Of a stretch of 64,000 nucleotides of DNA, positions 32,450-55,989 are shown in pieces. Position numbers and translations under genes: made by a program. This DNA comes from Antitrichia curtipendula (lineage: Eukaryota > Streptophyta > Bryopsida > Hypnales > Leucodontaceae): assembly GCA_951230915.1 (NCBI GenBank), contig OX579642.1, forward strand, positions 13,764,001-13,828,000. The letters are read 5' to 3'. Below the pieces are notes generated by a model. The model was not told where the DNA came from. It did not search any database and saw nothing but the letters and a program-made list of their open reading frames with translations. Numbering within the stretch: position 1 is the stretch's first letter; each line of letters begins with the position of its first letter.

Positions 32450-32930
32450 TTTTTTGAACAAATGGAAGACCCACTGCATTAAAAGAAAATACCACATTAC
32501 ACGACAGCCAAGCCATGAGCCTGGACAAATGAAGAGAATAAGAGCAAAAGGGAACAAAGAGAGGGAGCGGAAACGCTAGAAAAAACTACAACTAAGAGGC
32601 CCACACCCTTGCCACCTGATAATGTTACCCTCTCTTTGTACTAACAAGTTCGAGCGGAGCCAAATTTTATTAAAATTGAGCCGAATGGAAGGCGCTTTGT
32701 GAGGATTGAGCTTAGATGACCTTTGGGCTTTAAGACACGCCGCTCTGCCTGAGTCAAGGAGAGAGTCCCAGAAGCTTGTTGGAAAAGGCCACGCGGCCAA
32801 AGTCTATGCGCAAAGACCTTTTGATTCCTAGTAATCCAAATTAACCAAAGCGAGGAACCTCGCAAGAGGGACCAAATGATGGGGCAGCGAAGAGCCGAAG
32901 ATGCAAAGAGTTGGTTTGAATCTCACGTGG
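32450..32930 (-). pseudogene. LINE 3' fragment (5'-truncated)
   Basis: Read on the minus strand, the segment encodes the C-terminal tail typical of plant LINE polyproteins. It has RGSSLWLIWITRNQKVFAH (about 32860-32800) and a frame-shifted W-x-LLDSGRAACLKAQ stretch, then FNKIWLRSN and IIRWQGCGPLSC. The 3' end lies near the run of T at 32448. All catalytic domains are missing, as expected for a truncated reverse-transcribed copy. Confidence 0.55.
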
Positions 32931-33014
32931 GGGCCCATTACATGGTGGTCATCCTGCAAGTGGTGCATAATAAATATTGAACTTAAAGATAAAAACAAAC
33001 GCTTGTGGCATATG

Positions 33015-33030
33015 CTTAGGGTTTAGGGTT
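33015..33030 (+). repeat. Short interstitial TTTAGGG repeat
   Basis: CTTAGGGTTTAGGGTT is two units of the plant telomere repeat. It lies about 380 bp past the stop of the DUF7869-like gene. A longer run in the same orientation lies at 38179-38222 on the gene's other side. Confidence 0.7.
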
Positions 33031-33411
33031 ATAGAAGAATTCATCATACAATGTGGTAATGCATGTAGTCTTACAAATCCATGGTGATGGACCAAAAAAA
33101 TACAATTTACAACAGAAAAATACACAATGCAACACATAAAACAAATTAAAAAATGTATTATATTGCACACCGCCTACAACATTAAATTCTAAAATACCAA
33201 GAAAAATAAATGAACATAATGGACTAAAATAATTTGCGGACTAAATCTATTTCTTCTTTCCAACCTCTTTCTTTATCTTTTTTTCTGTAAATATTTTTAA
33301 GAAAAGCACCTCCACTACTACAAGTACTTCAGTTACATTTTTTCTCTTAAAATATAAGAAAATACACTACAAACTTCTAATCACTTCCCTAAGCCTACAA
33401 TCTATCCACCT

Positions 33412-36255: not shown

Positions 36256-37990
36256 CCTGCAAGAAATATAACTGACATTAGTATATAATGGAAGATCAAA
36301 TCCACGAGTGCAAGATACATTATACACGAAATTCTAAAAATTCATTGCCAAATTATCTTCGAGCCGAAGATATAAATTTATAGAATTCATCGTACAAGGA
36401 TATGAAGTCCCTCACAAGGGTGAGTGAAATGCAGGGTGAGTTACCTGACTATCTGAATACCCTGAAATTCATTCATTCTATATAATATACATAAAGATAA
36501 TAACATGAGAATCATTCAAATCAAACATGTCACAGACGAATCAGTAAAATACTAAAGCGTAGATTATTACCATCTAAACGAACATAAACATCTAGAGAAC
36601 AAGAGATATGATTCTATTCAAATGAATATGTCTGAAGTGATACCGCCAAAGACGATATCCAACCACCTCACAAATACTCAGAGTGAAAGGAAAGGATCAC
36701 TTCATCATCGACCTGAAGATAACTAAAATGTCAATAAATTCAAAGAGTAATACATTCATTTTCAATTACCAGAACTCAAACCAAACACGCCAGCTAATAC
36801 TTAAAAGAAGTATTATCCTCGATACGAAGATAAATGTGTATAGATCATTTACTAATGAATTGATTCAAATGATATATTTCAGGTCTTTGTGATGTATATT
36901 ACGAATTTGTAAGAGATACATATAAATGAATACTACCACGAATACCAGTTCTAACTCCGATTGGAGGATAAGATTCTTTGAATGCATTCAGAATAAATTC
37001 CAAACAAAAATTGGATAAATGTAATGAAATCAATTTGAAATAATTGATCTTTGACAATTTATCATCGACTCGAAGATAAAAACAAAAAACAGAAATTACG
37101 AGAATCTCTCCGAGAGTGAGGAAGAAGAATCCGGGTGTCCGTATTGGGAGAAAGTGAATCCAGTAATTACTAGTAACTAAATTATTTATCTTCGTGTCGA
37201 AGATAACTGTATGTACTCGAGAAAGTAAATTTGGCCTCTTCAAGTTTTACATTATTCTGATGTATTATCATAATGTGCATTATCATAAACTACTGACACT
37301 TATCTTCGACCCGAAGATAAATAGAATAGGGATTGTTGTTCATGATTATTCTCGAGCCGAGGATAAATATGATCACTCTTGCCCTGGTACTGACGTTCTC
37401 TCCGGATTCTTCGGCGTAAAAATAGGGGAGATCAAACCACGTGAAATTCGACACAGACCTTGGAATCTTTGGCGTCTGAGTGCTTACCGCTCAACACTAT
37501 CATTTGTAGTTGACAAATGGAGAACAAAAAACTGTACCTTGAACAACAATACGGTTTATAATCAAACAGATCTCAATGAAAGACACCAAACACAGAAACT
37601 TTGACAAGAAATACTGAAAAAAGAACCTGCAATTTACGAGAACTCAAGCGATACTAAGCCGCCAAGACACTACTAACTTCGCAAAGACAGAATGCTTTGA
37701 AAATGCACACGTTCAGAAGCCGCGCCGTAACAATGCATACAGGAGGCAAAGGAGGAACAAAAGACTGGAGACAAGAAATGAGGCAATATGGGAAGCTCAC
37801 GAGAGAGAGACGAAGAAGAAAGTGGCGGGATGACTAAGCGGGAAGTTTGAACGTTCCAAAATTTCAGGAAGTAGGGGAGGAGTATCTCCCTACTTTGGGG
37901 GCGTTGACATTCCTATCCCGCAAGTGTTGATAACGGGTTGCAATGGAATCCAACGTTCCACCGACCTCTATTCTTATAAATAGGCGAACT
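36256..37990 (-). promoter_or_regulatory. Leader/intron region and TATA box of the DUF7869-like gene, with palindromes
   Basis: Upstream of the start codon the minus strand has an acceptor at 36257. Six or so palindromes of the type TTATCYTCG-N3-CGARGATAA follow at about 36353, 36813, 37058, 37185, 37299 and 37346. Then comes a pyrimidine-rich leader (37.6-37.9 kb) and a TATTTATAAG TATA box at about 37974-37983. Several short ORFs lie here, none convincing. The palindromes avoid the coding region and could bind a regulator. Confidence 0.5.
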
Positions 37991-38178
37991 TTTACCATCG
38001 AAATTATTGCTAGCCGACTCTTGTCAGGGAATGAGGTATTTACAGAAATACTGCCACATGACATTTGTCATGGAAAGTAAGATTTTTTTGAATGGAATCT
38101 CACGTGCAGGAAATCCCTTACTTTAGAAATCGATTTCAGTGAAATAATTTTAAAAATTGTTGAACCTGTAAAGGTGCT

Positions 38179-38222
38179 TTTAGGGTTCAGGATTTAGGGT
38201 TTAGGATTTAGGGTTTAGGGGG
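38179..38222 (+). repeat. Interstitial TTTAGGG-type repeat array
   Basis: About six units of TTTAGGG, with variants TTTAGGA and TTCAGGA. It lies about 200 bp upstream of the DUF7869-like promoter and has the same orientation as the two units at 33015. The array could be a telomere-repair scar, a telo-box cluster or an element boundary. Confidence 0.75.
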
Positions 38223-38440
38223 CTCATGGTATAGGAGCAAAAGCTATGCCACCAAAATCTCAAAATAGTGAAGCTTGGTCAACAAAAATAATCATAAGGA
38301 TTTGAATTTACAAATTATAAAATTATTTTGTTATAGATTATATTTTGGACTATATATGAATAGATTGATTCATTTCATTTGGATTAGTATGGATAAGATG
38401 TAGAGCATCTTGGTCAGGACAGTTATAGCGTATTTTTTAA

Positions 38441-39076
38441 CCCCTAAATGCCCAAGGCCTGTTTTGAGCTGCTTGAAATTTGCTCTAAATTGAACAAAAT
38501 GCCAACATTTTGATAAGTTGTATCAATTTTTTTTGAATTATAACCGTACAAATTCAACCTAGACATGTTAGAAATCTCATAGGAAAAAAAAACACAGCAA
38601 TATCACTTATGGAATGAATGATTATAATGTTTGACTATGAGGGTGTTAAAATTGCACAAATCTTTCAATCCTCTTTTCACAAGTCAAATCTAAAAAGTTG
38701 GTGACCAAAAAAATATGATGTTAAAGGGCCTAACATGTATAACCCCAATCAATTTATGGCTTCTTAAAATCTACTCTATAACTTTTTTAAATGAATTTGA
38801 ATGTGATTTTTTCTCCAAGATCTAGTGTATTTGAGGCTCATTTCCAAGAGCTCTCAACACTACGGGAAGTCAAGATTGCAATGGGTACCCTTGCACAAAA
38901 TCTTGAGTAGAAAAATCACTATCATTTACTTTCAAGATCAGATTTTTAATGCTGAAACTAGACTTCAAGAAGAACTTTCCAAAAATATAAACTATTAAAA
39001 ATAGCAACTTGGTTAGATTTTATTTAACTTCAAAGTTTTGCAAACACCAGATTTGGGTGCCTCGGGCATTTAGGGG
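38441..39076. mobile_element. TTAA-flanked non-autonomous transposon, family B, intact (636 bp)
   Basis: TTAA stands at 38437-38440 and 39077-39080. The ends are CCCCTAAATGCCCAAGGCC and, inverted, CCCCTAAATGCCCGAGGCAC. This uninterrupted copy defines family B and shows what the interrupted copy at 2897-4495 looked like. It has no ORF. Confidence 0.75.
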
Positions 39077-40561
39077 TTAAAGAACATCATATTGAATCTA
39101 TTTTTTAGCTTTCAATTCAATCCTTCAATCTAATTTCTAGAGTAATTCAAAGTGTATAGTGGAAAAATTTAATGTTGAGCATTCAAATTCTTATTATCAT
39201 GTTTAGTAAGGTAAGAAAACCGAAGCTTGTTTTTATTAAAATAATTATAAAATAATGAACAAAATACAATTCTGGATGAATGGACACAAAAATTATTTGA
39301 ATCAATAGAATAAATTATAAATTAATTTGTGCCTTCAAATACATCTTCAACTCTCGAAGCTTTAATTATTTCTAGTTCTTAGTTTTTATTAAAATACTAT
39401 CTTTGTGGGTGAAGGAACACTCAAATTATTTGAAACAATAGTTCTCTTGGCACTTTGTGTGTCTTCATTTTTTGGCCTCAATTGTGTGACATCATGAATC
39501 TATTGATTCCTTATTTATGTTGTGGTTTCATCTAATGACTTCAGTCGTTTGGCCACAGAATTTTATAGTGAAGCTATGTCTTTATTTCATAGCCTTAGTG
39601 AAATGGCCTCAAAATTCTATTGCCTAATCTCGTATATTTGTCTTTTCACAAGTTGTATAGCATACATTCGGCAGTACACTGATACATATTACCATATATC
39701 AACTAAAACAATTCCAACCTATGTCAAGTACATTGGAAGATATTTGCATTTAAAGTGAATTTTTTTTTTCCATCTTCCTACAATAAATTATAAGACTTGA
39801 ATACTCTTTAACTTATAATTTATGCAATTGAATTTGGATTTTGAATTAATTTTTTTTAATGGAGACATGAATTGATAATTTAGCCTCTACAGGACCAAGG
39901 CCATTTTGGGGGTCAAAATCACTCGAAAATGTCATTTCTATTGCATTCATCCAAAAAAAAATTTGTTTTAAAGAATCTAATTGTAAGATCTTGTACTTCG
40001 CTTCTTTGAGATCGTGTGGTGAAAATTGCATAAAGTTTGACTATACAAATTGAAGATTATCAGCATTTGAAGTTCAAAACTCTTTTTATTTTTAACATTG
40101 ACCTGCAACTGTAGATGACTTTGACTATTATTTCTGGAATTTTTTAGACGAATCTAAACTTTGAATTAAAAAAACATTGTGGTAAATAATTGATTTGATA
40201 GTCTTGGAATATTTTTAAAAAAAACACGCATTTGATTTTCATTCTTTAAAAAATTGTTAGGTAGATGTAAGTGTAAGATCGAAAGAAAAAATAAATTATT
40301 AATAGCTCAAAGATGGGCTCTAGATGCACAAAGAAATAGCTGGGGATTTTCACAATTTTTTTATTTCTAGACTGCTCCAAAGTCCAGAAATAGTTAAATG
40401 TGGCATGATTGAAACACAATAATTTCAATGGTATTACTAAGATTGTTTTAGCAAACAATCTTAAACTTTTTAAACAATTTTCTTGAAAAATTATAAAAAA
40501 TTTCATTCAAAATGAATCCTCCAAGTTAATTTTTTAAGAAGATGCCTAAATAGCCCTTTAA

Positions 40562-41921
40562 CCCCTGAAGCCCCAATGGTCCTACTAGGGTCAAAATGCG
40601 ACTTTGAGTACTAGGCTCATACGGTTTCAATATTCATTATTTACAAAAAAAAATTCTGAAGCTAGAAAAACACACAAGTTTCTTGGCAATATGATTTTTA
40701 TTTCAATCAGTGTCCGGAAATAGAAGTTATTGCACAAAAAGTAAAAAATAGAGGACAGCTGCCAAATAGCCCCCAAAAAATCACAAAAAATCAAAATAAT
40801 TTAAAAACAATTTTGTAACACATTATAATTTTTTGAATTATTTTGTTCACGATGTAAAAATTTCTAACACATTAATGTAGAACTCCTTAACACATTAATA
40901 TGTAAAACTTCTTTAGTTAACACATTATGTTCTTGATAAAAATCCTTTTGTCCAACTTTGAATGTGAATTCCTAAAAGACCAAAGTGTGTTTTTTCGCAG
41001 CATAGCGATTTTGGGCAACTCACTACGAATGGAATTTATATTTTTTTTCTTTGAAATTTTCATACAACACGTGCTCGAGGAGTACCTTAAAGGCCCAACA
41101 ATTTTCATAACTTTTGACTACATGGTTAAAAAGTTATTGCATGATATGTCATTTTCAGTCCTTGGCGGGCAGCACGGGCAGCAAAAAATAATTCTTTATA
41201 AATCACTTCTTAAGAAAATAAAAATTTGAAATTGGTTAATCAGATTTATATGTACATAGAAAGCTTTGAATCATTCCATTTAGATCTATGGGTCCAAAAC
41301 TATGAGGATTCTTAGTTTAAGGGTAGTTATGCAATCTCAACTCTAAAATAAACTTTGAAGTCCTTTATTAAACTCAGTTTTCAATTTTTTTGAAAAAAAA
41401 TAAAAACATTGGGTGTACATTGTTTATTACAACATTACAACCGTTGGGATTGGCATTTTTCAATGCCATAAATAAATTCTTCAGAAATTAGTATTTAGAA
41501 TCATTTTCTACTTCTTTGTACTTACTATTTTTTGTCAATTCAAACACTATTATCTTGCAATCCACATGGTGGAGAATTCTGAAATTTTTTCCACATCTTC
41601 TTAAACAAGTTTACTACAAGATCCTATAGTTACATGTGTCCAAAAATGTTTTTTTTTCTAAAATTTGGCACTAGTATTAGAAATGGCAGTTTTGGAGCGT
41701 TTCTGGTGAAAACATACTAGTCAGAAATATGTAAGAGTTAACATCTTCCAATCCGTATGGAAAATTTTGATGAAATTTTTCTCACATGACTTTAGACAAG
41801 TGAAGTATACAATCCTATGGTTAGATTCTAAAAAAATGTCTTTTTGCTGTCTTAAGTGAATGCAACGCAAATGGCAATTTTGAGTGTTTAGGGCAATAAA
41901 ATAACCTTCGGGCTTTAGGGA
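40562..41921. mobile_element. TTAA-flanked transposon, middle of the nest
   Basis: TTAA stands at 40558-40561 and 41922-41925. The ends are CCCCTGAAGCCCCAATGG and, inverted, TCCCTAAAGCCCGAAGG. It is in turn split at 41738 by the element at 40969-41737. With that removed, ACTTTGAATG-TTAA-CATCTTCCAATCC is collinear, on the other strand, with GGAAGATATTAGCATTCAAAGT at about 12170. Confidence 0.65.
40969..41737. mobile_element. TTAA-type transposon, innermost of the nest (769 bp)
   Basis: The left flank TGAA is a drifted TTAA, and the right TTAA is at 41738-41741. The ends TTCCTAAAAGACCAAAG and, at the right, GTGAAAACATACTAGTC...GTAAGAG match, in inverse, the element at 11156-12100. It is the youngest insertion of the three. 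Confidence 0.65.
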
Positions 41922-42282
41922 TTAAACAAGATTGTCCTTATCCTTTTCATCACCAATCCTATTTGAATAAATTTTATCAATTTATATGAAGAAGAAATAT
42001 AATATTTATGAAAAAACATAATGACTAATAAATATGACATAAGTCATAATTATTATGACTTTCTGCGATTTTTTCTGCATTGCCCATTAAGTTTAGTTTT
42101 AGGCTTTTTGTGGTATGACTTTTACTCCCGCGCACCAACCGAAATAAAAATTATATTTCCACAAAGCTAATAAATGTTTCTATTTGCTCAGAAAGTTTTG
42201 AAAATTTTCACCAAAAATGGAGGCCATAGGAACCGAACCAAAATCTACTTTATCCCCTAAAGGGACAATGGTCCTTTAGAGG

Positions 42283-44040
42283 TTAAGAAAAATTAATTGA
42301 AAACAAATATATTCATTTTTCAAAGATCTACAAAAATGTAATCTACAAGAAATAAATTTTATAAAAATTATTTCAAATTAATATTGTGATTTATTTATTG
42401 CTTGTGGTTGACTACTTTGAGCTTTGTGCAGCAAAATTATTGCAATTTTATTAAAAACTATATTTACAAAATAAAATTTCAAAAAACTTGTTCCCAAAAT
42501 TGAGATAATAGGATTTGCACGGAACCTTCAATTGTCACCCAATGAGACGCTTGGGACTTGAGGGGTTATGGAGTTAATCAAAATAGAATGAATACAAACC
42601 TTTTGAACAAACATCAATCCATGTAATAAAATACAAAAATTTAGTGAGTTTTTTAAAGTAAATTTACTAAGATGATGACTTTGGAATGTAAATTGAAAAA
42701 ATCTTATCATTTGCAGTAATTCCCTTTTTGAATGTTTTTGTTTATAATTGTGAAGAAAATACTTTTAGTTTGTATTTGTTTAAGTTCATTGTTTCGTTCC
42801 TTATTTTTGCAAGAAGGTGATCTATTTTGTCAACCATTCTTCAGATTCTCACATTTGTGTCATTGTGTGAGGATTGAATTTCTACTGCCAAGGTCTTCAA
42901 AGCTAGAAAGGGTCCCAAAATTTTCATTCTTCAATATATAGAAAATAAGGGAGCTCTAAATTCAATGCCTATTTTTATACCATTAAATAAAAATGATAGT
43001 ACAACAATTGAACATACATTTTATATAAATCAAAATGTTGTTTTGTTAATAATTTAGTATGAATTTGATTATGCCATCTGCGAAAGGTTACATCTCTTCG
43101 TGTTTATGGTTTTGATTTTTTTTGCATGATATGTATATTTGAATGTTTTGTAGTTTATTCATGTATCTCTCATCACTTTCATATTGAATTCCAAATATAT
43201 TCACAAAATAATTTTATATAAGATACATGAAGATATCATATTAAAAATGTAAAATCATGTGGAAGCCATTGACTTGGGCACGAAGGTGGATCATACTTTA
43301 GGTTGCTTAAAGGTCTTCAAATTATTAATTTGATTCGTGGTAAATAATATTATTAAATCCAATCATTAAACATAGATTTTTATTAAAAGCCACTATTCAT
43401 ACCAAGTCTTTTTGTAAATATTCATGAGTTTGATGCAATTTTATTCTTGTAGAATTTGTTCTCCTTACATCCATAAAAATGTTATTATTTTCACTTTGCC
43501 TTCCAAACAATGTAGTACTTCACAAGTTATGATGATAATAATTAAAATGCCGAAAGCAATGAATTTGAGAATTAGGTGAAGTGCATATTTTCATATCAAA
43601 TGACAATGTTGAAATGCATGGAATGCCTTTTATGAATCTATTATTGCATTCACATGACTATTTGATTGATATTATAATGGAAATTTAATCACTTGTCATG
43701 CATCTAGAATCTAAGACAAACAAATCTTTTATCTATTACAAAATCACATGAGCATTACATACTAGAGAAGACTTCGTCTATGCAATAAAATTAAATTTTT
43801 GTAATTATAGCATTAAGTCATTCAAATGAATTTGTGTGTCATAGCTTTTGCTCCAACAATTAACAAGGTGACAAAACAATTTATTTTTCGAATAACCGAC
43901 CCGTTGTTCAATGGTTAAAAAATTTCAAACACCAAAATATAAAATAATTCACTTCATGAATGAGTAAATAACTGGACTTGGTACTTGAAAAAACGGTTTA
44001 GTATGGGTATTGGAGGAAATTAGTCAGTAAAACTAAAAAC
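42283..44040. other. AT-rich stretch, one orphan TTAA-element end
   Basis: At 42550-42569 GCTTGGGACTTGAGGGG followed by TTAT looks like the right end of a further TTAA element. Its left end is not obvious. The rest, to about 44.0 kb, is AT-rich with no coding signal. Confidence 0.3.
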
Positions 44041-44157
44041 TACAACTTGCCGAACACTCGTGTGGAGAAGGAACTTAAAATTGCAACTTTGGGGTCCCGG
44101 ACTACAAGTTCGGAACTGGTCCGGGAGGTCAACGCAAGGCCGGAGGAGGTTTGGATA

Positions 44158-44223
44158 GAGGTTCGGTTACAGGCCTGGGAGGTTCGGGAAGAGGTTTGGT
44201 TGCAGGCCTGGGAGGTCGTCACT
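44158..44223 (+). repeat. Two tandem 33-bp units in a GC-rich island
   Basis: GAGGTTCGGTTACAGGCCTG... and GAGGTTTGGTTGCAGGCCTG... are consecutive 33-bp units. A degenerate third unit lies just upstream. They sit in a GC-rich island at 44040-44630, whose ORFs read as low-complexity Cys/Arg/Val-rich protein. I would not call them genes. Confidence 0.6.
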
Positions 44224-44639
44224 CCCGTTTGGCGGCGCAGCTTCATTTTCCGTGACTTTGCAGGTTGTTCTCGTTAGTGGCGCGAATCACTAGGTTGTTG
44301 GGTCGATTCTTGAGTGTCGTTGTTGAAGTTCAATTACTCGTGTGCTTCAATCTCTAGGTTCTTGGATTTCGAAGTCTCTGTGTGTTGCGCGAGAAGTGTG
44401 GTGCGTGAGAAGCCACCGAATTCGGAGAAGCTTGGTTCCTCGATCCCCACGGTGCATTCTCCAACCACACGTTGTCTGCGATTTGGGGTGTGCGCCACTT
44501 GTTTGTGGGTTTCGTGTGCTGCGCGGAGGAGGTTGGTGTTGGTGTGCTCAGTGTGCTGCGCGGTGTCGGGTAGAGAGGAGCGCGCTTAGGGAACACACGA
44601 GGTGTCTGGCTGCAGGTTGTGAGTGTAGATGAAAGGTAA

Positions 44640-46050
44640 ATAGCAAAACTTGAATCTTCACTTAATCTTTTCTTCAATCTTCGCTTGATCTTCACTTCAA
44701 TCTTTCGTTGACCTATCATGTGGTGGTTCTATAGGGCCAAAGATAAGGGTGTGTTATAAAAACAAGGCCTCGGACGGGTAAAACGGGACGGCCAAACCAC
44801 GAGTTGGCCGTCCAAAAGATTGGCTCCTAAAATCAAACCCACGGTGACCAGGAAGCGCCTTTCACCGGTGGGAACAACAAATAAGATCAACCATGTGGGC
44901 CATTAACCCCACTTCGTCGCCACAAACACGAAAAGGAGCGCTTACTGGATAACCACGGCTCGCAACAGGTTTACAATGCAGAAATTGAATTGCAACTAGC
45001 CTCCAAATCCGGCTAGGAATAACAGAAATGAAAACGAACCACAAGCCACAACACACTGGAGACCCTCAAAGCTCCTCAAATCTTCATCTTCAAGTCTTCA
45101 AGTCTTCAAGCCTTCACATCTTCAAAAATATCTTCAAAACTCTAAAAGAACTCCAACTTCACCCTCAAACTACCTAAACTCCACTCAAAAAAAGAAGGCA
45201 GCAGACCTTCCTATGCTTCCATATTCATAACTTTTGCATTTCTTCTTCAAATTAAAAGATTGATAGCTTTTCTGAGAGCTAACAAAACTTCCTATCACTC
45301 CTACAACTTTCAAGTCATTCCAAAACTCTGTCCAACTTCTATGACCTCTCAAAGTTTCGGTCCATATATGGTAAAAACAAGAGACTCTCTCACCTTCCCA
45401 CACTTACAACTCACTCATAAATGCACCAAATTGAATGAATGATAGCTTTATAAAAAGCTAACAACATGTACTACACTCCATCGAAGTTTCATTTTAAACA
45501 AAGGACCTGTCTGTTTTCTATGGTCGGTCGAAGTCTTAGCCCCTCTTCATAGGAGGTAGCAGACCTCCCTCCACTCAAACAAGCATAAATCTCAACTTGC
45601 AACTTCAAATAAAGCAAGAGAGAACAATTTGGAAAGCTAACAGTATGATAAACAACTTCTTCAATTTTCATTACCAAATTCCAAAAACCCAATACACCAT
45701 GAGCTTCCAAACACTCGGTTCCCCCAAAACAACATTGGGAGAGAAGATGAATAGTGTCCATCTTTTCCTCCCCTTTTCCAACACCTTTTGCCCCACCTAA
45801 ACAAGTGTACATCAGCCCTTAACTCCCTCCTAAAGTCAACTTACACCTAATGGCCTTCATATTTGGCCCCACATCTATATCTTTATCTTTAACTTAGAAG
45901 GAAAATCACTTCAAAGTCCAAACTATTTCCATTCTTTCCTTCTACAACTATAACCAAACAAAATAGTTTCAACAAAATACTTCAAATATGGATTGAAGTA
46001 CTAACATTAAACCAATGCCTATTAGAGGTAAAAAACTAGAATTCCAAGAC
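44640..46050. other. Non-coding; internal repeats, no gene
   Basis: 45240-45300 and 45425-45470 share the word GATAGCTTT...AAAGCTAACAA, suggesting a degenerate tandem. The minus-strand ORF at 45489-45812 has no recognisable features. The end of the small gene at 46056 lies just beyond. Confidence 0.25.
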
Positions 46051-46055
46051 TAGTT

Positions 46056-46514
46056 TTACTCCATCTGCAAGAACTTGAGAATGCGCTTGATAGTCGCAGC
46101 GATGTAATCAACACGACCCGCCTTCGTTAAAGGATTCATTGGCCCTTCTAACCAACGATGGTGACCACGACTTCCTTCAGTAGGCTTCATCATACAGTAA
46201 TATTGATCGACGTTGAGACCTTCGAAACATCCTTCAAATGTCACATCTCGACTGCCAGGCTCAACACATCCAACCTGCAACAAAATCATCAGTGCTCGAG
46301 CGTCACGTTGAAGATTCCCGTGCCCTTGCCGCTCCACACGAGGTTGCTTTGGCGGACGAGAAGGCCCAGCTTCTTCTTGTGGACGCTCATGCGGCGGCGC
46401 AAGACTTAGTGGCAGAAGAGATTGATCCGGTAGTTGTGACAATGAAAATTCAAATCCAGGCTCCGATTCTACTTCTTCCTCTTGGGACTCTGAAAAAACC
46501 CTCCAGTTCGACAT
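46056..46514 (-). CDS. Small hypothetical protein of the palindrome-bearing region
   Basis: A 152-residue protein starting MSNWRVFSESQEEE. I chose this ATG over the one ten codons upstream. A TATTTAAAAGG box lies at about 46577-46586, which leaves a normal leader. The N-terminal half is acidic and Pro/Ser-rich (disordered). The C-terminal half is compact, with GHHRWLEGP and a helix, AGRVDYIAATIKRILKFL. I recognise no family. It is divergent from the ParB-like gene at 48198 and could share a regulatory region with it. The continuous frame and good promoter spacing support a real gene. Confidence 0.45.
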   Translation of the reverse strand: MSNWRVFSESQEEEVESEPGFEFSLSQLPDQSLLPLSLAPPHERPQEEAGPSRPPKQPRVERQGHGNLQRDARALMILLQVGCVEPGSRDVTFEGCFEGLNVDQYYCMMKPTEGSRGHHRWLEGPMNPLTKAGRVDYIAATIKRILKFLQME

Positions 46515-47540
46515 TTTGACTATAAAGTGGAAAATTAATATCACTAATGGACTTCAATGAAACTCTAAAGCAAAGCCGTCCTTTTAAATAGATAACATGT
46601 ACCTCCACGAAACGTCATCTTGAAGTTATTCAACAAAATAGCGTCACCATGAAGCTATTCAACAATACATATTATAATATGTTTTTGTACTATGAACAAA
46701 TTTACAACAGGACAGCGGAGAAGCTTCGCGGCGGTTTTCACTTTCTTCTGCAAGTTTGCGGTTGCAATTGCGCGCTTCTTTCTCCTAGGTTGTGAGTTCT
46801 CTACCTCATCTGTATTGCTGTATTGGTCATGATATTATGTAAATGCTCTTGTGTTAGAATTGTTTGGGGTGTTTAGATGCAAGTGAAAGTTCGTTGTCAA
46901 AACTGAAGCTACAGATTTAAACTTTGAGCAAACTTGCTCAGGCTGGGGTGTATGTGTTGATGCAAGAACGATCGATTTGCTCCGATGTAACGAACTTGAT
47001 TACGAACTTTGAGCGAACTTGCTTGTGCTGTATCTGTTGATGCAAGAATTTTGTTTGTTGCGTGGAGAAAGTACTTGCTCAGGGTGTAGGGGTCACTGCA
47101 TAAATTCGGATTGTGGCTAGCCAGGGTTCATTCCTTTTGATGCTAAGGTTTTGAGGTTTAGGGTGACTTCACAAGCTTGTTGTTTTCAAGATTTTCAACT
47201 TCATTACTGTGTTGTGTTTCTTCAATGTGTGGTTTAGTTTTCACTAGTTTCTGTTACTTGTTCCTTGAATTCATGCAGTGTTTGTCCAAGTTCTCGTGAA
47301 ATGTGACATCATTTCTAACGATCTAAGTCTTCTTATGTGCAGATTTTGTAGTGCACAACACTTGAGTTGCGATTTAATTTTGTGTAGACGAAGCAGTCGA
47401 AGATAAGAAATTCCTGCTTCCAAACTCTATCAGTCTTTTTTGTTTGTTTTTGGTAGTTCACATCATGCAATAGTTTTGGGTAAGAACTTAGGGTTTTGAA
47501 CTCGATATTCACAATCTAAAACCGTCACACCTGTTTGAAA

Positions 47541-47808
47541 CCATGCTGGAGCCGGAGATAATTATCTTCGGACCGAGGATAATCGTGCTCGGACCGACGA
47601 TGGTTATCTTCGTCTCGAGCATAGAGATGCTGGAGCCGGAGATAATTATCCTCGGTTCGAGGATAATCATGCTTGGACCGGTGATGGTTATCCTCGGCAC
47701 GAGGATAATTGTGCTCGAACATAGTTATCCTTGAGCCGAAGATAACTATCACCAGTCCAAGCATGATTATCCTTGAGCCGAGGATAATTATCTCTGGCTC
47801 CAGCATGG
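47541..47808. repeat. Array of palindromes arranged as a large inverted repeat
   Basis: A unit of about 90 bp starts GCTGGAGCCGGAGATAATTA and contains two or three short palindromes. It occurs twice in direct orientation (from 47543 and 47629) and once inverted (to 47806, ending ATCTCTGGCTCCAGCAT). The outer ends pair with each other. The short ORFs seen on both strands are a consequence of the symmetry. Confidence 0.75.
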
Positions 47809-47907
47809 GTGAAATCCTCATATACATCAGAAACTACAAACACAATATCCAAAGACAATCCGAACCATTAAAAACCCAAACCAAAATACAAAACAACACA
47901 AATAATA

Positions 47908-48145
47908 TTATCCTCGAACCGAGGATAAATATACAGGTCCGCAGAAATACATACTAATCACGGGCGACAACAACCATGATATATAATGTAAGTAACCTAA
48001 GGCAAGGGATGACTATCCTCACAAAGAAGATTATCCTCGGGTCGAAGATAACCCAAGGCAATGTAGATTCTCCTAAAAGAACACAATCTACCGTAGAAAA
48101 CTGATGAGAAGGTTGTTACGACAATTATCCTCGGACCGAAGATAA
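47908..48145. repeat. Three further dispersed palindromes
   Basis: TTATCCTCGAACCGAGGATAA-type sites lie at about 47908-47929, 48031-48051 and 48125-48145. The half-sites (TTATCCTCGG and CGAAGATAA) are constant, and the central two or three bases vary. There is AT-rich unrelated sequence between them. Confidence 0.8.
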
Positions 48146-48197
48146 TCCTACAGAAAATCGCTAACGTGATGTTCCACTACTTGCAGATTACCTCAGA

Positions 48198-51100
48198 ATG
48201 GAAGGGAAAAAGGAATATGACTACTCAACCACAGCCCCGTTTCTCGAGCCATTTAACAAATGGGCGGTGGAGGATCCATTCATATTCGACATGCCGGAGG
48301 TCTACGGGGAGCTCTGGCAATTCAAGCCCATTGTCGACTCATGGACCTTCGGAATAAATCTGTCAAAGGACTACGTACTTCTCCGCTACAGGGTGAAGAA
48401 TTCAGGAATCTACGTGAATTGGAACCTGGACGAGAAGGTCGCACTCGTGGAGCTCCATCAGGAGAAATTCATTGTCCTAACACTTCATGCGTGCGATCCA
48501 TCTGGAAAGGAAACAATGCACACGCACTCCATTGTCATGCATGAAGAAGACGATGTGGGAGCATTTGATCTGGACAACCTCATAAGGGGTTTGCACGAGG
48601 GAAACCACGATGAACTGGCGGACGAGTTCCAGCAGAGATTCCATCCATGGATACGTAAGAGCGCCATCTTCATGGCAAGAAGGATTGGATACATGTTCAG
48701 CAGACTGAAGGAGTATGCAAAAGATCATGTAGACAGGCAATCTCGACTCAGCCTGGGACGTGGACAAGTGAGATGCAAAGCAGATACCGAAACAAAGTCC
48801 ATTTCCGGGGCACGTGCCCGAACTGGGAGCAGAGGAAGTGGAAGGGGAACAACGCGAGCACAACTCCCAAAACGGAAGAACCCGGAATCGGAGATCTCTG
48901 CGGCCATTGAGAAGCGCCAGAAACCCGTGGCAGACAGTCGGGTAGTAACTGTTGGAAGTTCAGGATCCGCGCTAACAAACGTACATAACGGAAAGACGGG
49001 CGAATATGAGCCCATCCAGAAATTTGAAGTGGTAGGCGCATACCAGAAAGATTTATGGGAGAAGCACGCGTCATGTTTTATTTTTGATCCCAGTACATAC
49101 AAGGTGAACATCTCCAAATGTCACTTGGCACCTCCACGATACATTATCCGGAAATTGGAGATGAAGATTGTGGAGGAAATGAAAGAGACCCTTATCCATC
49201 TAGGGTCAGTCCAACAAAGGCAACTAATATGCTTGACTCCGATTGACGCCAACAAAAGGCTCCTCAAGGAACGTCCATCCAAGTGGGACGATATTAAGGA
49301 AGGAAATTTCTATATTATTAATGGCCAACATAGCATCACCGCCTCCAAGATGCTGCAAAGTGGAGGATGTTGCGAGTCTCGGAAGGTGGAGTTGCAGACG
49401 TGGGATGCAATGATCGTCTACTCGCTTGACTCGAGGAAGCTGACCGAAATATCGAAGTGGTACAACTCCTCAAATCACCTCGTTCATAGTCAGCCAACAT
49501 GGGGGAACCAGATTTCGGCTTGCAGGCAGGTGTGGAAGGAACTGAAGCGGCCAACTAATGTTGAACGAGAAGGACTGGCAAGACTGAACAAGGCCATCTT
49601 CAATCCAACTGTTTACAAGGTATGCTATGTTTTTTCATTTATCTTCGAGGCGAAGATAAACTGTGTGTAGCAATGGTAGGTAATGAAATGGTGCATTGCT
49701 TCTGCCTTTTTATGTATTCGTAGAACACCGTCAAAAGTCATGCCTACGTTTATCCTCGGGTTGAGGATAACTTGCTCTCCTCTATTGTCTAGGAACTGAC
49801 GACTGTTTCAATGACAATATTGCTATGCAGGAATTTGTAGACGCTGTTTTGATACGGTATTGTAGCATAAATCCGGACAAAGAAGGAGCTAAGGTGAAAC
49901 TCGCGTCGGATGTGAAGAATGAAATTAGAATCATAACATTGGCAGATGAGACATACCAGTTGTGGGAGGAGTTCCTCCGGAAACACACTGACGGAGAACT
50001 GGTGGATCCGGTGACGTGTACTGAATACAAGGTTTCCACAAAAAACTTCAATCCCAAGAATTTCTTGCTGAAGCGAGAGTTCTTCAAGCACATGGGGCAT
50101 TTTACGGACAAGGATCTCAAGGAATATGTCCTCCATCTGCTTGGACGAACTAAGGGGCGCAAGTGCGATTACCCAAAAGTCTCCATGGCTGCTGCAAGGA
50201 TTTTGTGCGTGGACAACTATAAGGCCGAGCACTGGGTGGAGCGTAGGAAGCGCAAGAAAATCGTGATGGAAGAGTTCATGGCCATCGACAAGTCCTTGAA
50301 GTTCAGGGACTCACAAGGAGAAGTGATCGATGAGGTATGGAGGAAATGGAAGCGCACGAACAAGTTCACTTCCGCTTCGTGGGATTTTCTATTGACTGCC
50401 CCGCCCAATTCGTTTTTTGTGAAGCGTCTAACCAACGAAGCAAAAAAGAAGTCAGCCGTTGACTTTAAGGACCACCCAAAACTGTCCGTTGTCTATCCCA
50501 TCTTCAAGAGCTTCTTGAAGTTGAAGAAGCAAATCGCGGGAACGGATGGCAATGTGTACATCCGGGGGCACCAATGCTATCCACAGGCTCTTGTCACGAG
50601 CCACGATTGGCCCTACCAGAATAGAGAACTAAGGCTCGCTGTCGTAGACTTCAGAATCCTGCCCAGACCGAGAGCTGGATCCAATGACGGTCCTCCCTGT
50701 ACTCCACTGCTCAATTACTTGGCTGCTCATTTGAAGCCCGTAATTACTACACCAGACGCCTGGTTATGGATTGTGGGAAGTCAATACGACTTGGAGGCGA
50801 CCAAGAAATTTGCTGCTTTGCGGCTCAAGGGCTACGAAGTCAAGGTTTCAACCTATCAGCCCAGCAAGGCTGAGAGGTTGGACAACACGACAACACGAAC
50901 CACGCCTTCCCTGGTGAAGCTTGTGTTTGTGTTGAAGAAAGGGACCGATGGCGAGCCCAAGAATGCGGATGCAGTGAAGAGAGTCTACTCCACGGACGAC
51001 ATTCCATACTACAAGGAATTCCAGAAGAATACGGAGGCCAAATATAGGATCCATGCCAACGAGCTGAGGATGGAGTTCTACATTGACATTCTTCATAGTT

Positions 51101-51774
51101 TCTGTGTGAAGGGAGAGAACGTCATCGGCATCTACACGGGGTCGAAGTTCATGATTGCAGCGAAGGTATAAAACTTACTCCTGCTATCCTCTATCCTCGT
51201 GCCGAAGATAACACTTTGAGTTCGATGGTTATCTTCGGCATGAGGATAACCATCCATGATCAATAGTTAGCCTTGGTTGTGGAATAGGACTTCAGTATCA
51301 ATGCGGATCTCGTAGCTGATCTCATATATCTTCCCTTCATCGTAATTCCTGAACATTTATCTTCGGCTCGAGGATAAATGTGCTGGAGTTTGTCTTCGGT
51401 TTAATGTGAGAATTGGATACTAAATTGTCTTGTTGGTCTTGCAGATGTATGGCCTCTTTTATTATGGGATTACCGAGCGGCATATATCTGAGAAGCATCG
51501 GGAGATGGCGACGTTCGGCAAGTCCTTGGACATCAACGACTTCTGCCATGAGAATTCGCCATACCTCCCAAGATATGAACGTCCAAGCAACCTATCAACA
51601 CCGGAACTAGATTCCGTGTCCACACCGTCCTTAGCGGATCCCATTGAAATTGCAGAGAGGAATGTCGACTTAGGTGGTCACAGTGGTGCCTTGGAACTTG
51701 GGATAAATGAGTTCGGGACGAACACTGATATGGTCGGCGGCGACAACCTGGAGGTTATTATATCTGGTGTCTAG
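48198..51774 (+). CDS. ParB/DGQHR-like protein with a methyltransferase-like domain (three exons)
   Basis: Exons 48198-49619, 49831-51165 and 51445-51774, all joined in phase 0 at GT-AG sites, give 1029 residues. Residues about 285-420 look like the ParB/DGQHR domain: YIINGQHSITASKML at about 372-386 matches the D/N-G-Q/E-H-R box, with Ser for Arg. From about 735, VVDFRILPRP, LAAHLKPVITTPDAWLWIVG and a C-terminal CVKGENVIGIYTGSKFMIAA (about 898-918), running across the splice to MYGLFYYGITE, follow the order of N4/N6 DNA methylases. There DPPY is followed by a 'VLKPGG' strand, then PGDxVLDPFxGSGTT. Here both catalytic motifs are degenerate, so activity is doubtful. A basic linker lies at about 200-250. 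Fusions of ParB and methylase are known in phages and bacteria. Confidence 0.6.
49620..49830 (+). other. Intron 1 of the ParB-like gene, with two palindromes
   Basis: The donor is AAG-GTATGC and the acceptor GCTATGCAG-GAA. Palindromes lie at about 49638-49660 and 49749-49770. Removing the intron keeps the frame and replaces an in-frame stop at 49670. Confidence 0.7.
51166..51444 (+). other. Intron 2 of the ParB-like gene, with three palindromes
   Basis: The donor is AAG-GTATAA and the acceptor GGTCTTGCAG-ATG. Palindromes lie at about 51191-51211, 51228-51250 and 51357-51377. Joining across it completes the glycine-rich motif with YGLFYYGITE. Confidence 0.7.
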
Positions 51775-51777
51775 GTG

Positions 51778-52614
51778 ATGAACCGGTTGCCCGAATCGAC
51801 CCCGCCATCAGTTGAGGAAGAGGTAGAGGACACGGCGCAGGTGGAGGTGATGGTAGCGGCAGAGACGAAGAAAAGAGTGAAGGGCAAGATGCCCATTGAG
51901 GGGTCAGTAGCCATACACGATTTGAGTGAACTCGAGGAGTCGTACTCGAATCTGAATGACATTGAATATGGGGATGCGGAAGCTGACGAGGGGGGGCCAT
52001 CAAGTGCCAACAACGAAGTAGAATCTGCTTTGGAGCTGCAACCTAAGCCTGCTGCGGAGTACTCTGCACATCCAGTTCAGGGTCAAACAGTTCTGCTTCT
52101 GGTGAAGCAAGAAAACAAGGACTTTTGGAAGGAGAGGGCGGAGAGAAAGGCCCTGAAGCGGGCAGAAGAGGAAGCCAGATGGGCAGAGCAGCAGTTGGAG
52201 AAGGACATGTTGAAGGCGGAACTAGAGAAACTCAGGAAAGAGAATGACTCTCTCAAGACAATGACGCAGGACCCGTCAGTCTCTCGATCCATTCAGCAGA
52301 TGAGTTCCGGATCTCCACAAGGCTCCGTTCAGAAGTCGACTTCCGCCAACACCCAGCATTACCCTCGAGGCGAAGATAATGCGGCTTCACCTTGGGACCA
52401 TGTTCGGCGAACAACCTCGACCGATATCCCGAAGGATCTTCGGGTCGAAGATAATGTTGTCTCTCATCCTACCTTGGAGGAGGACAGTACCAGACCCACG
52501 GCTGCTGAATCTGTACTACCGGATGTTCGACGGGAGGAACAAGGGCATGACGAGATCCCGGACCAGCAAGACCTGATGCTGAATTGGGTTATCTTTGATG
52601 CGAGAATAACTTGA
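51778..52614 (+). CDS. Acidic coiled-coil protein or C-terminal extension of the ParB-like protein
   Basis: This is in the same frame as exon 3 of the ParB-like gene and separated from it by one TAG (51772-51774). It may be a readthrough extension, a C-terminal half cut off by mutation, or a separate cistron starting at the ATG at 51778. It is acidic and disordered, with a clear coiled coil (FWKERAERKALKRAEEEARW through LEKLRKENDSLKTM, about 52120-52265). Two palindromes are in the coding frame and are read as RGEDN and RVEDN (52359 and 52436). A third (52588-52610) contains the codons just before the TGA. Confidence 0.45.
   Translation: MNRLPESTPPSVEEEVEDTAQVEVMVAAETKKRVKGKMPIEGSVAIHDLSELEESYSNLNDIEYGDAEADEGGPSSANNEVESALELQPKPAAEYSAHPVQGQTVLLLVKQENKDFWKERAERKALKRAEEEARWAEQQLEKDMLKAELEKLRKENDSLKTMTQDPSVSRSIQQMSSGSPQGSVQKSTSANTQHYPRGEDNAASPWDHVRRTTSTDIPKDLRVEDNVVSHPTLEEDSTRPTAAESVLPDVRREEQGHDEIPDQQDLMLNWVIFDARIT
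52359..52610 (+). repeat. Three palindromes inside coding sequence
   Basis: The sites at 52359-52379, 52436-52454 and 52588-52610 match the intronic palindromes in sequence but lie in a low-complexity coding segment. The third marks the place where the open frame changes from the one ending at 52614 to the one beginning at 52611, as if its insertion had shifted the frame. Confidence 0.65.
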
Positions 52615-52820
52615 GCCGGCTCGCTGATATCGAACTCCAAGGGGAGTCAGTGCCGGAGACGCAAGAGGAAGGTGAGATTCCAGCGGATCCGGTACTGCTT
52701 GCAGTTGCCTCTCCGAACCACAATATGGTCATTGAATTCGAGAATCCGCCTGACGAAGAGGAGAGCTTGGACTACGGGGGTTACATGGACGAAGAAACAA
52801 CCAACGTCGATGTCGGTCAG
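52611..52820 (+). CDS. Acidic linker exon preceding the HAD domain
   Basis: The frame encodes ADIELQGESVPETQEEGE and further acidic residues to VDVGQ. At 52820 a CAG-GTACAG donor could join in phase 0 to the acceptor at 53351 (TTTGATCAG-GAA), linking it to the HAD exon. Without splicing the frame ends at 52862. It has low complexity and no domain. Confidence 0.35.
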
Positions 52821-53351
52821 GTACAGTCTGTCGCATCTTCAGATCCCTACGATTATTCATGAGTCTGTCCATTGGGATGTAATGGATGTTCGTGTTGTGG
52901 GTTTCTCATGAGGGATCTCTTATGTCGATTCATTCTGATTGACAGGAGGGAATGGGCAGTCTCTGATTGTTTGGCGTCGACAAACTGCTCTCTGTGACTT
53001 CGTCTTGTAGGATAGTGTACATACTCAAGCGAAGTGTAGTGAATACTGTAACCAAATTGGATAGTAACTCATCAAAACCGGTAGACCGGATGTATCTTAA
53101 TTACTTGAGAAATATATATACGGGACACTCTGCTTTCGGTGAATTTCGTGTCTAATGGATTCATTTTGACCATGCTTGTGCTCAGCGCAAAAAAAATATG
53201 AGTGTGCTTTGACCGTTGCCACTCAAACTACCATTTACTGGAGGGGTTCTGCAGTCGCTTAGTGGAATTAAGTACTGTTCGCCGTTTTATGAGTCACCTG
53301 ATTCCGCATTTCAACAAGTAACTACATATCTTTTCTGTTTTGTTTGATCAG

Positions 53352-54194
53352 GAAGTAGCAAGGAAGCGCAGAGAGAGAGTGCCGCGAAGTGTGTCCACGC
53401 TAGTTCCTCAACCGCGGCAGAAGTGGTTGAACCTCGTATTTGATTTGAACGGAGTACTGTGTGAGTGCTTGTTTCAAAAGTCATTTTTGAAACAACGGCA
53501 TCACACAGTGCACGATAATATCTTTTCCGATCAAATCCCCACTATCATTGATCCCAAGGCCGTCTTCGTTCGTCCCAACATGAGGGAGTTCTTAGACGAG
53601 CTTTCTAGGATCACGAATCGCATTGTAGTCTGGAGCTCCATGTTGAAGAAGACTGTGGAACCTGTCGCTGGTTTCCTGTTCCAAAACAACAAGGCGCCCT
53701 TCGATATCCTAGGCCAAGAACAGTGCAAGACGATAGAAGTGTCCAAAGGGCAACACCTTAAACAGATTGGGAGCCCTTGGAAGTACCTGCTTCTCAAAGT
53801 GCTTGAAGAGCAATTGTTCTAAGACCCGGATGATCCAACGTCCTTTAACAAGGACAACACTATTCTCATTGACGACTCTCCGCAAAAGAGCATCCTCAAT
53901 GAGAACGGGAATGCGATATTCCTTGAGAGTTGGAATCATGAGATCCATGGGGACAAAGTATTGTTGGGCAGTTTAGTTCCGTGGTTGAGACGACTTCATG
54001 AGGAATGTCCACTTGGTTGCTTGCGCGAGTTCGTTGATGCGAACCGCATTGGCGTGCCCCCCTTGTCTCTTGAGTCCCATCATGCGTATGGACTGTTAGG
54101 TGGCATGAAGGAGTCCGCCAATAATTTTGGGTCCCGTTTCGTCTTGCCGGGAATGAAACTAGTGATTGAGCCAGAGAGACGTAGGAAGAAATAG
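53352..54194 (+). pseudogene. FCP1/NIF-like HAD phosphatase domain with one in-frame stop
   Basis: The exon starts after the acceptor at 53351. FCP1/NIF-family landmarks are in order: motif I LVFDLNGVLCE (about 53436), RPNMREFLDEL (about 53572), motif II IVVWSSML (about 53623) and motif IV ILIDDSPQKS (about 53861). The nucleophile Asp is kept. The second Asp of D-x-D is Asn, as in a plant subgroup with DLNG. A TAA at 53820-53822 splits motif II from motif IV in an otherwise intact frame to TAG at 54192. CAA-to-TAA by a single C-to-T change would explain it. FCP1-type enzymes remove phosphate from the RNA polymerase II tail or similar phosphoproteins. It probably belongs to the same element as the ParB-like gene. 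Confidence 0.65.
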
Positions 54195-54505
54195 TACTTC
54201 TGCTTATACTCGTCGATCGTAGAAAGCGTTGTACATAGTGTGAATACAAATTATTATGTAAATTTCATTCATGGGTATTAGTAAAATTTTGAAGTTTCAT
54301 GTTTTGATTCCATGTTTTCTCTATGTTGAGTTATCTTTGGATCCAGGATAAGTTTTGCTCTTTGAGATCTTGTTGTTTTTGGTTGGAGAATAGTTGTGGA
54401 GGCTTTGTCTTATCAATGAATTGAAGATATTAACTATGCAAGTAGTTTGTTATCTTTGGACCGAGGATAAATTGTGTAAGGTTATGTACTCTCCGTTTTC
54501 TTCAG
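54195..54505 (+). other. Intergenic or intron segment with two palindromes
   Basis: Weaker copies of the palindrome lie at about 54330-54351 (TTATCTTTGGATCCAGGATAA) and 54449-54470. The segment ends in an acceptor-like TTTTCTTCAG at 54505, and the next open frame starts there. Confidence 0.45.
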
Positions 54506-55451
54506 GTCGGAGGGTCCGTATTGCACCTGTTGCAACAGAGACAACCGCTCACCACTAGGAGCTTGTTGTCTGGATCGGATGCACCCATGTCTAAGAAATC
54601 CGAGTCGGTTGAAGGGAGCTTCTTGCCGTTCTCTTATCCTAGGCCTTCTCTTCTGGGCTCTGCAACCGACGCGGCTTCCGCAGCCATTGACTTCTCCAAG
54701 GGGAATGTGGAAGAAGGCGTGGTCGACAGCCCACCGAGTAGAGGATCATTGAGGACCCCGATTTGCTCGCCTTCACCTGTGAAAAAGAGTGACTTCATTC
54801 CTAGTCGATTGTGCTCGCAATCGCCAACTTTACGGACTTCAAACACCCCACACAGGAAACTATATGTAGATGAAGAACACCAGGCAGTGGATCCTCACCT
54901 TGAAGATGGTTTAAAATCACATGCAGCAGTTGCATATCACCCTCTACAGGGTGATGATTACAATACAGATTCGACAAGAGGAGGTTGCAAGAGGAAGGTC
55001 CCATCCGGTGCATGCAATGCAGATCAAGTCCCGCGCATTGCAGAGATTATTGGCTCCATTCCTCCGAAATCCGTGGGAGGTGGATCTTCACCTTCTGGAG
55101 TACCTATATCCCACCGAACAACTCTTCGAAACTTTCGAGGGTCAAATTACACACGATCAACAACAACTGCTGATTTGTACATAAGTACTACCAATAGACC
55201 ATTTCCAAGGCCGCCTTGTCGAAGTTGCAGGTCTCTTTCAAATGATGGCACAGGGCGGAAGTGAACGCAAGCAACGAAGAGAAGTGAAGGAACTAATGCT
55301 GATGGGCATGTTTGGCCGTGTCCTTTCTGCAAGTGAAGATCCAAGGCCTTCTCGACGCGAGGATATCCTTAGAGGGTTGAGCAAGTTGAAAGCAGTAGAG
55401 GCTGCCAATGAAGCAGCAAAAAATTGTTCCTCCACCAAAAATGATGGCTAG
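54506..55451 (+). pseudogene. Unrecognised, possibly decayed last gene of the palindrome-bearing region
   Basis: From the acceptor at 54505 a Ser/Pro-rich frame runs to about 55000. Continuation is more protein-like in another frame (LAPFLRNPWEVDLHLLEYLY and LFETFEGQITHDQQQLL, to 55181). A third stretch (MMAQGGSERKQRREVKELML..., 55242-55451) ends the region with a basic helical segment. Frame changes near 55000 and after 55180 imply either an unrecognised short intron or decay. No family is recognised. Confidence 0.35.
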
Positions 55452-55989
55452 TGGATTAGTTCCCTTTTGGAATGCAATGAATTTTGTATAGCATCCATTA
55501 CTATTAATAGAATATTCATTCACAAAATTTTTTTAGAAAAGGCAAAGGCTTCATGTGCACATGGCCTTCATATTTTTACACTATCATATTCAATCATTAG
55601 AATTACGGCAGTGATTTTAGTTACTAGGCATTACGGTATATGTAAATGAGATAAATTGGTTCATATGTAGATGGGATCTCAAGTAGATTCATGTTCCTGA
55701 ACGTAAATTGACTACTTCACTTGTTATAAATGTTACATACTTTTTGACCACCCATTTGCAATTCCATTTTGCATTGTTTGAGCTTGTGCTTGCTCTAAGC
55801 TTTGACAAAATGTAACAAAAATTTATCTTCATGGCCATTTAAAAATAGCAATCTCTGGACTAACTGTTGGTAAGGGTGTCCATATTTATCTTTGCCTCCA
55901 ACAACTTATCTTTGGAAAGAAAGGACTTAGGTTCTCATACTGACCATTTCGTCTCATTTTAATGAAAATGGCCTTCCTATATGTTTTAC

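What the first reader, a model, noticed from the sequence alone, without database searches (positions are those of the whole stretch)
48198..54194. ParB-like box, methyltransferase-like domain and HAD domain in one transposon-like plant locus
The sequence shows three phase-0 exons that join INGQHS to a region following the N4/N6 DNA methylase order, then a coiled coil, then an FCP1-type HAD domain. Fusions of ParB and methylase are known from phages and bacteria; I do not know of one described in a plant mobile element. Both methylase catalytic motifs are degenerate, so I infer a DNA-binding or regulatory role rather than methylation. It may be a domesticated or transferred module.
Basis: partly seen in the sequence, partly recalled or inferred. 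Interest (0 to 1): 0.9.

Follow-up and report, generated by a model that had tools for sequence, protein, structure and literature searches.

The report
Moss transposon with methylase-like helper protein
The predicted gene is half of a large two-gene jumping DNA element repeated many times in a moss-like genome; its protein carries a ParB-like motif and what looks like a dead DNA methylase, and the element is studded with short mirror-image DNA sites that even its tiny passenger copies keep.

Summary
The locus is real, but it is one gene of a 23,764-bp DNA transposon (32212-55975) with 27-bp terminal inverted repeats and 4-bp target duplications. It recurs many times in a 400-Mb genome whose named relatives are mosses. 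The window copy is broken. The methylase-like reading is moderately supported, with degenerate catalytic motifs. The ParB reading rests only on a near-invariant 11-residue box; the nucleotide-binding Arg is Ser. New here: a 21-bp palindrome, 26 sites in the element and at least 750 genome-wide, clusters upstream of both genes and in introns, persists in subfamilies 40-54% identical, and is kept by MITE-like copies with the same termini. I propose the fusion protein is a sequence-specific accessory factor of the VANC or TnpA type. That it binds the palindrome is inference.

The parts
32212..55975 (.). Whole DNA transposon, 23,764 bp
   Evidence: Copies in the own genome stop matching at these two points; TIR and TSD read; related empty site with a single CCTA
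32212..32238 (+). Left terminal inverted repeat, 27 bp
   Evidence: 25 of 27 positions match the right end reversed
55949..55975 (-). Right terminal inverted repeat, 27 bp
32208..32211 (.). Target-site duplication CCTA, left copy
55976..55979 (.). Target-site duplication CCTA, right copy
33412..36333 (-). DUF7869 gene, 973-residue open frame, probable transposase; 'IHDKMD', 'LDN..GDNKN' and 'GHTHEDID' motifs
   Evidence: Pfam PF25273 E 4e-45; 49 rows in own genome; D570 in 21 of 21, D445 in 20 of 20 with a letter, D610 and D612 in 20 of 21; DDE reading is inference
36353..37366 (.). Seven 21-bp palindromes TTATCYTCGRNNCGARGATAA (0-3 mismatches) upstream of the DUF7869 gene
47562..48145 (.). 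Nine palindromes upstream of the fusion gene, partly in 42/84-bp tandem repeats
48198..49619 (+). Exon 1: N-terminal beta-rich domain (about residues 10-125) and ParB-like INGQHS box (residues 373-383)
49639..49770 (.). Two palindromes in intron 1
49831..51165 (+). Exon 2: helical part, then beta-class methylase-like domain (from about exon residue 250) with degenerate motifs
51191..51377 (.). Three palindromes in intron 2
51445..52820 (+). Exon 3: end of methylase-like domain, acidic linker, coiled coil (by inspection); this copy has an in-frame stop at 51772-51774 and a frameshift near 52560
52359..52609 (.). Three palindromes inside the coding part of exon 3
53352..54194 (+). Exon 4 (inferred): FCP1/NIF-type HAD domain, motif I DLNGV; this copy has an in-frame stop at 53820-53822
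   Evidence: Pfam NIF E 2.4e-10 and 1.5e-4 for the two halves; exon model by inference
54331..54470 (.). Two palindromes 3' of the fusion gene

Best explanation
This is a large TIR-type DNA transposon of mosses. The DUF7869 protein is the likely DDE-type transposase. The second gene makes a multidomain accessory protein: beta-rich N-terminal domain, ParB-like box, pseudo-methylase of the beta/MT-A70 kind, coiled coil, FCP1-type HAD. I propose that this protein, dimerised by its coiled coil, binds the two half-sites of the 21-bp palindrome. The arrays upstream of both genes and in the introns would then let it keep the element transcribed and open to transposition, in the manner of VANC (anti-silencing) or TnpA (transposition helper). 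Shown: element ends, TSDs, two-gene layout, purifying selection, palindromes and their persistence, MITE-like derivatives. Inferred: the moss host, the transposase role of DUF7869, which protein binds the palindrome, the enzymatic inactivity, and the anti-silencing or helper role.
For: Ends and 4-bp TSDs in 5 of 5 full copies with both ends read (W, A, B; D, E read) and in 1 of 2 MITEs read (L041); a related repeat near copy A is uninterrupted at the window's insertion point and has a single CCTA. 33 of 49 DUF7869 rows have a divergent exon-1 neighbour within 40 kb. dN/dS 0.10-0.14 between subfamilies for exons 1 and 2. Palindrome: 26 sites in the window, all within the element, against 0.05 strand matches by chance; 750 + 737 strand matches genome-wide, reversed-pattern control 0. 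4 of 4 diverged copies carry it between exons 1 and 2 and after exon 2. In environmental homologues 7 of 14 exon-1 tails of 10 or more residues translate a palindrome, against 2 hits in 80,537 and 0 in 9,900 control residues; these patterns were written after I had seen the tails. 36 places match MITE end plus half-palindrome exactly. One variant palindrome occurs 14 times genome-wide, 12 of them in pairs beside six exon-1 rows of one subfamily, and 3 of 3 sites of L040 share its change, like the concerted change described for VANC motifs (PMC5735166, passages read, which also place VANC21 in introns and other non-coding regions).
Against: No direct evidence says which of the two proteins, or which host factor, binds the palindrome. 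The six members that share the variant palindrome may simply be recent copies of one another. The four most distant homologues with a tail show no palindrome. ParB homology beyond the box was not detected. Exon models are poor (pLDDT 47 and 45). Among the close copies W, A, B and C dN/dS is higher (exon 1 0.29-0.79, exon 2 0.17-0.44), and none of the five other copies read is fully open. No match to a VANC family was seen, and no methylation or expression data were available.
Confidence: 0.5

Rival explanations
1. The DUF7869 transposase binds the palindrome (subterminal sites, as in many TIR transposons), and the ParB-like/methylase-like/HAD protein has another role, such as licensing transcription through its HAD domain.
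For: In the MITE L041 the outermost palindromes lie 42 bp and 71 bp inside the two ends, where a transposase site could be. DUF7869 is more conserved than the fusion protein across subfamilies (67-84% against 42-54% in the same elements), as the palindrome is.
Against: In the full element the sites cluster at gene starts and in introns of the fusion gene, not at the termini, which fits a regulator better.
Confidence: 0.3
2. The ParB-like box is a chance motif in an otherwise unrelated protein, and only the methylase-like and HAD parts have outside relatives.
For: No convincing family or PDB sequence match for exon 1; masking the box removes all profile signal; the Arg of the GxxR P motif is Ser in 29 of 30 members; AF2 block means there are 24-56.
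Against: The box is near-invariant down to about 31% identity, the low-confidence model has strand-helix-strand-helix around it, and ParB to N6/N4-methylase fusions are frequent in phages (PMC12704722, section 7 read).
Confidence: 0.4
3. The locus is a domesticated or recently transferred module with a host function.
For: Strong purifying selection on exons 1 and 2 between subfamilies.
Against: Many dispersed copies, a good part with stops, TIRs and TSDs, MITEs; selection is as expected for a transposon's own gene. No hit outside the close family at E up to 1.
Confidence: 0.04

Closest known systems
VANDAL transposons and their VANC anti-silencing proteins (Arabidopsis; PMC5735166, PMC10398659)
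   Same: Accessory gene in a DNA transposon, with a short motif in tandem repeats upstream of genes and in introns; motif differs between related families (passages).
   Different: VANC21 motif YAGTATTAY is not a palindrome; the protein here hit no VANC family; recalled: VANDALs are MULEs with 9-bp TSDs, here TSD is 4 bp and the transposase candidate is DUF7869.
Phage ParB-CTPase fold fused to N6_N4 methylase (PMC12704722)
   Same: ParB-like box and methylase-like domain in one protein.
   Different: About 340 residues between box and methylase-like domain, extra N-terminal, coiled-coil and HAD domains; GxxR Arg lost; methylase motifs degenerate; plant transposon. Domain order in the phage proteins was not seen.
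MT-A70 family including pseudo-methylases such as METTL14 (pseudo-enzyme status recalled)
   Same: Same methylase class by Foldseek; catalytic motif lost.
   Different: No significant sequence relation; part of a transposon.
CACTA (En/Spm) transposons with TnpA (recalled, not searched)
   Same: Accessory DNA-binding protein plus arrays of short sites.
   Different: Different TIR, TSD length and proteins; site arrays there are subterminal.

Membership tests
TIR-type DNA transposon | Terminal inverted repeats | tested here: met
   27 bp, 25 of 27 identical in the window
TIR-type DNA transposon | Target-site duplication of constant length | tested here: met
   4 bp: CCTA, AATA, CTTG, and CTGA in MITE L041; AAAG, TAGA. 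MITE L042 could not be scored (altered left end)
TIR-type DNA transposon | DDE transposase | tested here: inconclusive
   DUF7869 with conserved D445, D570, D610, D612; fold not predicted; triad pattern recalled
ParB/Srx (ParB-CTPase fold) | GxxR P motif in Box II | tested here: not met
   G in 29 of 30; R is Ser in 29 and Asn in 1 of 30; Arg seen only in L038, not among those 30
ParB/Srx (ParB-CTPase fold) | Match to ParB_N (PF02195) | tested here: not met
   No match at E up to 1 in the whole genome read in six frames, nor for 8 exon-1 members at E up to 10
ParB/Srx (ParB-CTPase fold) | Fold | tested here: inconclusive
   AF2 block means 24-56 over residues 281-474
Beta-class N6/N4 or MT-A70 methylase | Rossmann-type methylase fold | tested here: inconclusive
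Beta-class N6/N4 or MT-A70 methylase | [DNS]PP[YF] catalytic motif (recalled) | tested here: not met
   D[FIL]R in its place, in 7 of 7
Beta-class N6/N4 or MT-A70 methylase | FxGxG SAM motif (recalled) | tested here: not met
   [YF][TCS]G[SA]K in 7 of 7
FCP1/NIF HAD phosphatase | Pfam NIF above gathering score | tested here: met
   (40.8 and 21.9 bits for the two halves, cut-off 21.8)
FCP1/NIF HAD phosphatase | DxDx(T/V) motif I (recalled) | tested here: not met
   DLNGV in the three copies whose exon 4 was printed, W, A and D; second Asp is Asn
VANC | Sequence homology to VANC | tested here: inconclusive
   No Pfam family on exons 1-3; VANC sequences were not compared directly
VANC | Protein binds the repeated motif and removes methylation | not testable with these tools
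   needs ChIP/DAP-seq and methylomes

The most novel reading that the evidence does not exclude
A plant transposon carries a parS-like site array and a ParB-like clamp fused to a dead adenine methylase: the protein loads on the palindromes, spreads over the element, and shields or remodels its DNA methylation state so that it stays mobile. It would be a ParB-parS-like system evolved for anti-silencing.
Probability: 0.17. Interest if true: 0.92.

Novelty: new variant of a known kind. Interest (0 to 1): 0.72.

Why it matters
It adds a large two-gene transposon with an unusual accessory protein, from a plant lineage for which my searches found no such system described. It offers a second, apparently unrelated case of a transposon whose accessory gene travels with arrays of a short site that drifts between subfamilies. 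If the protein binds the palindrome, mosses become a place to test how transposons evade silencing, and it would show a pseudo-methylase used for DNA recognition rather than catalysis.

Tried and rejected

Profile comparison with 55 phage DGQHR-type proteins gave E 7e-7, but those proteins had been chosen by that very motif and the match spans 20 columns around the box; with the box masked it vanished, so I do not count it. A look for ParB-methylase fusions among 61 phage methylase ORFs, themselves chosen by motif I, found none. The first attempt at the methylase comparison collected no sequences; its printed scores are stale and were discarded. One search stopped with an error after exons 1 and 2; the rest was done, which printed 7 of 15 copy pairs.

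Phage P1 ParB was fetched and not used. CpG: palindromes keep CG at 21 (left) and 22 (right) of 26 sites while flanks have CpG o/e 0.38-0.50; suggestive only, since exons of the element stand at 0.80-0.85. The L037-type pattern (7 strand matches) is one that L037's own sites do not match in full, so it tests little.

Paper searches in which I saw no description of this element: (DUF7869, 0 papers); only listings and abstract beginnings were seen. PMC12704722: abstract, section 7 and passages. PMC5735166: passages. PMC10398659: abstract and outline. The library lacks most subscription journals.
Full report
What is there. The window is a stretch of a 400-Mb genome (G000:C10). Comparing 40-kb stretches around five copies with the window shows the element ending at 32212 and 55975, with only scattered other repeats shared beyond. 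At these points lie 27-bp inverted repeats, AAGGCCAT(A/T)TTCATTAAAA(C/T)GAGACGA, flanked by 4-bp direct repeats: CCTA in the window, AATA and CTTG in copies A and B, AAAG and TAGA in D and E. Copy C's left end was not in the fetched stretch. Near copy A lies a related repeat that is uninterrupted at the window's insertion point and has one CCTA. It is therefore a DNA transposon, 23,764 bp in the window and 21.6-21.7 kb in A and B.

Two genes. On the minus strand, 33412-36333 is an open frame of 973 residues with Pfam DUF7869 (E 4e-45). Of its 109 database hits, those that bear an organism name are from the mosses Ceratodon purpureus and Physcomitrium patens, so I infer a moss host. In 21 aligned relatives D570 is invariant, D445 is present in 20 of 20 with a letter, D610 and D612 in 20 of 21, in the settings IHDKMD, LDN...NKN and GHTHEDID. 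This looks like a DDE triad; that is inference. 33 of 49 DUF7869 rows have an exon-1 row within 40 kb in divergent orientation, 2 in another orientation, 14 have none listed. Third-position bias in comparison with copies C, D and E marks stretches of these two genes only; no 300-base step between 36.4 and 48.1 kb shows it, but several steps there had few aligned bases.

The three exons join at GT..AG in phase 0. Both junctions hold in 4 of 5 other copies; copy D has lost the AG of the exon-2 acceptor. dN/dS in the nine pairs that involve D or E is 0.10-0.14 for exons 1 and 2; among the close copies W, A, B and C it is 0.17-0.79, as expected where few changes and decaying copies are compared. 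For 7 of 15 pairs printed it is 0.20-0.27 for the start of exon 3, 0.29-0.44 for the coiled-coil part and 0.16-0.63 for the two HAD pieces. In those copies exon 3 has a length divisible by three up to a donor at 52821, and an acceptor at 53351 leads in phase 0 into the HAD frame, which lacks an ATG before motif I. This gives 1,659-1,662 codons. None of the five is fully open: A has a late stop in exon 4, B one stop each in exons 1 and 3, C stops in exons 1 and 2 and a frameshift in exon 2, D one stop in exon 3, E one in exon 2. The window copy has two stops and a frameshift in exons 3-4, so it probably makes no full protein. The 3' part is less diverged between these copies (dS about 0.09-0.15 in the HAD exon, against 0.44-0.58 in exons 1-2), which suggests that elements have exchanged their 3' parts.

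The palindrome. TTATCYTCGRNNCGARGATAA occurs at 26 sites with up to 3 mismatches in the window, all inside the element, where 0.05 strand matches are expected. Seven lie just upstream of the DUF7869 gene, nine just upstream of the fusion gene (in part in 42/84-bp tandem repeats), five in introns 1 and 2, three in exon 3, two downstream. Genome-wide there are 750 + 737 strand matches without mismatch, hence at least 750 sites; the reversed control pattern has none. Four copies with 40-54% identical exon 1 (L037-L040) all keep palindromes between exons 1 and 2 and after exon 2 (against exon places; the third exon of L040 was not located). In the environmental database, exon-1 homologues often read on into intron 1: 7 of 14 tails of 10 or more residues translate the palindrome, while the same patterns occur 2 times in 80,537 and 0 times in 9,900 control residues. 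I wrote these patterns after seeing the tails, and one of the seven (P0123) rests on the loosest pattern. The four most distant homologues (P0129-P0132) show none. Letters drift by subfamily: L040 has ...GGTTA in all three of its sites, and that variant occurs 14 times in the genome, 12 of them in pairs beside six exon-1 rows of one subfamily; these six may be recent copies of one another.

Passenger elements. Many of the genome-wide palindromes listed (only the first 100) are pairs 121-122 bp apart. Two were read: L041 is a 378-bp element with the same TIR, TSD CTGA and three palindromes; L042 is about 250 bp with two, its left end altered and no TSD assigned. 36 places match TIR plus 20-50 bases plus half-palindrome exactly; letters were shown for 32. 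A sequence kept in 0.25-0.4-kb passengers is likely a functional cis site; in L041 the outer palindromes lie 42 bp from the left and 71 bp from the right end.

Mechanism. Shown: transposon, two genes under selection, conserved cis sites. Best inference: a helper protein binds the sites. The layout matches VANC21, which sits on motif arrays in introns, intergenic and terminal non-coding regions, VANC causing methylation loss (PMC5735166, passages; PMC10398659 abstract). A coiled coil plus a two-half-site palindrome fits a dimer. The dead methylase fold would serve DNA or base recognition, or compete with host methylation; this is speculation. The main rival is that the DUF7869 protein binds the sites. 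I found no description of the element in the searches made, which cover open-licence papers only; elements of this kind may be in repeat libraries that I could not search.

Noticed in passing
window 44564-46715: About 2.15 kb present in the window element but absent at the same place in copy C; it holds a 165-residue minus-strand ORF at 46056-46553 without Pfam match. Probably a nested insertion.
   Followed up: partly
window 59081-59467 (-): Fragment of a DDE_Tnp_4 / Harbinger-like transposase (Harbinger is recalled), outside the element.
   Followed up: no
window 62611-63838 (-): Open frames that read like a LINE reverse transcriptase ('ADDM' box), by inspection only.
   Followed up: no
G000:C5: Contig C5 (37 Mb of 400 Mb) holds 50 of 93 exon-1 rows, many decayed; it may be a sex chromosome or otherwise low-recombining.
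   Followed up: no
window 52821-55975: In the parts measured (intron 3 and HAD exon) the 3' side of the element is much less diverged between subfamilies than exons 1-2: mosaic elements by recombination or conversion.
   Followed up: partly
window 31636-32211 and 55974-56319: The element sits in another repeat, of which uninterrupted relatives lie near copies A and D: related empty sites.
   Followed up: partly
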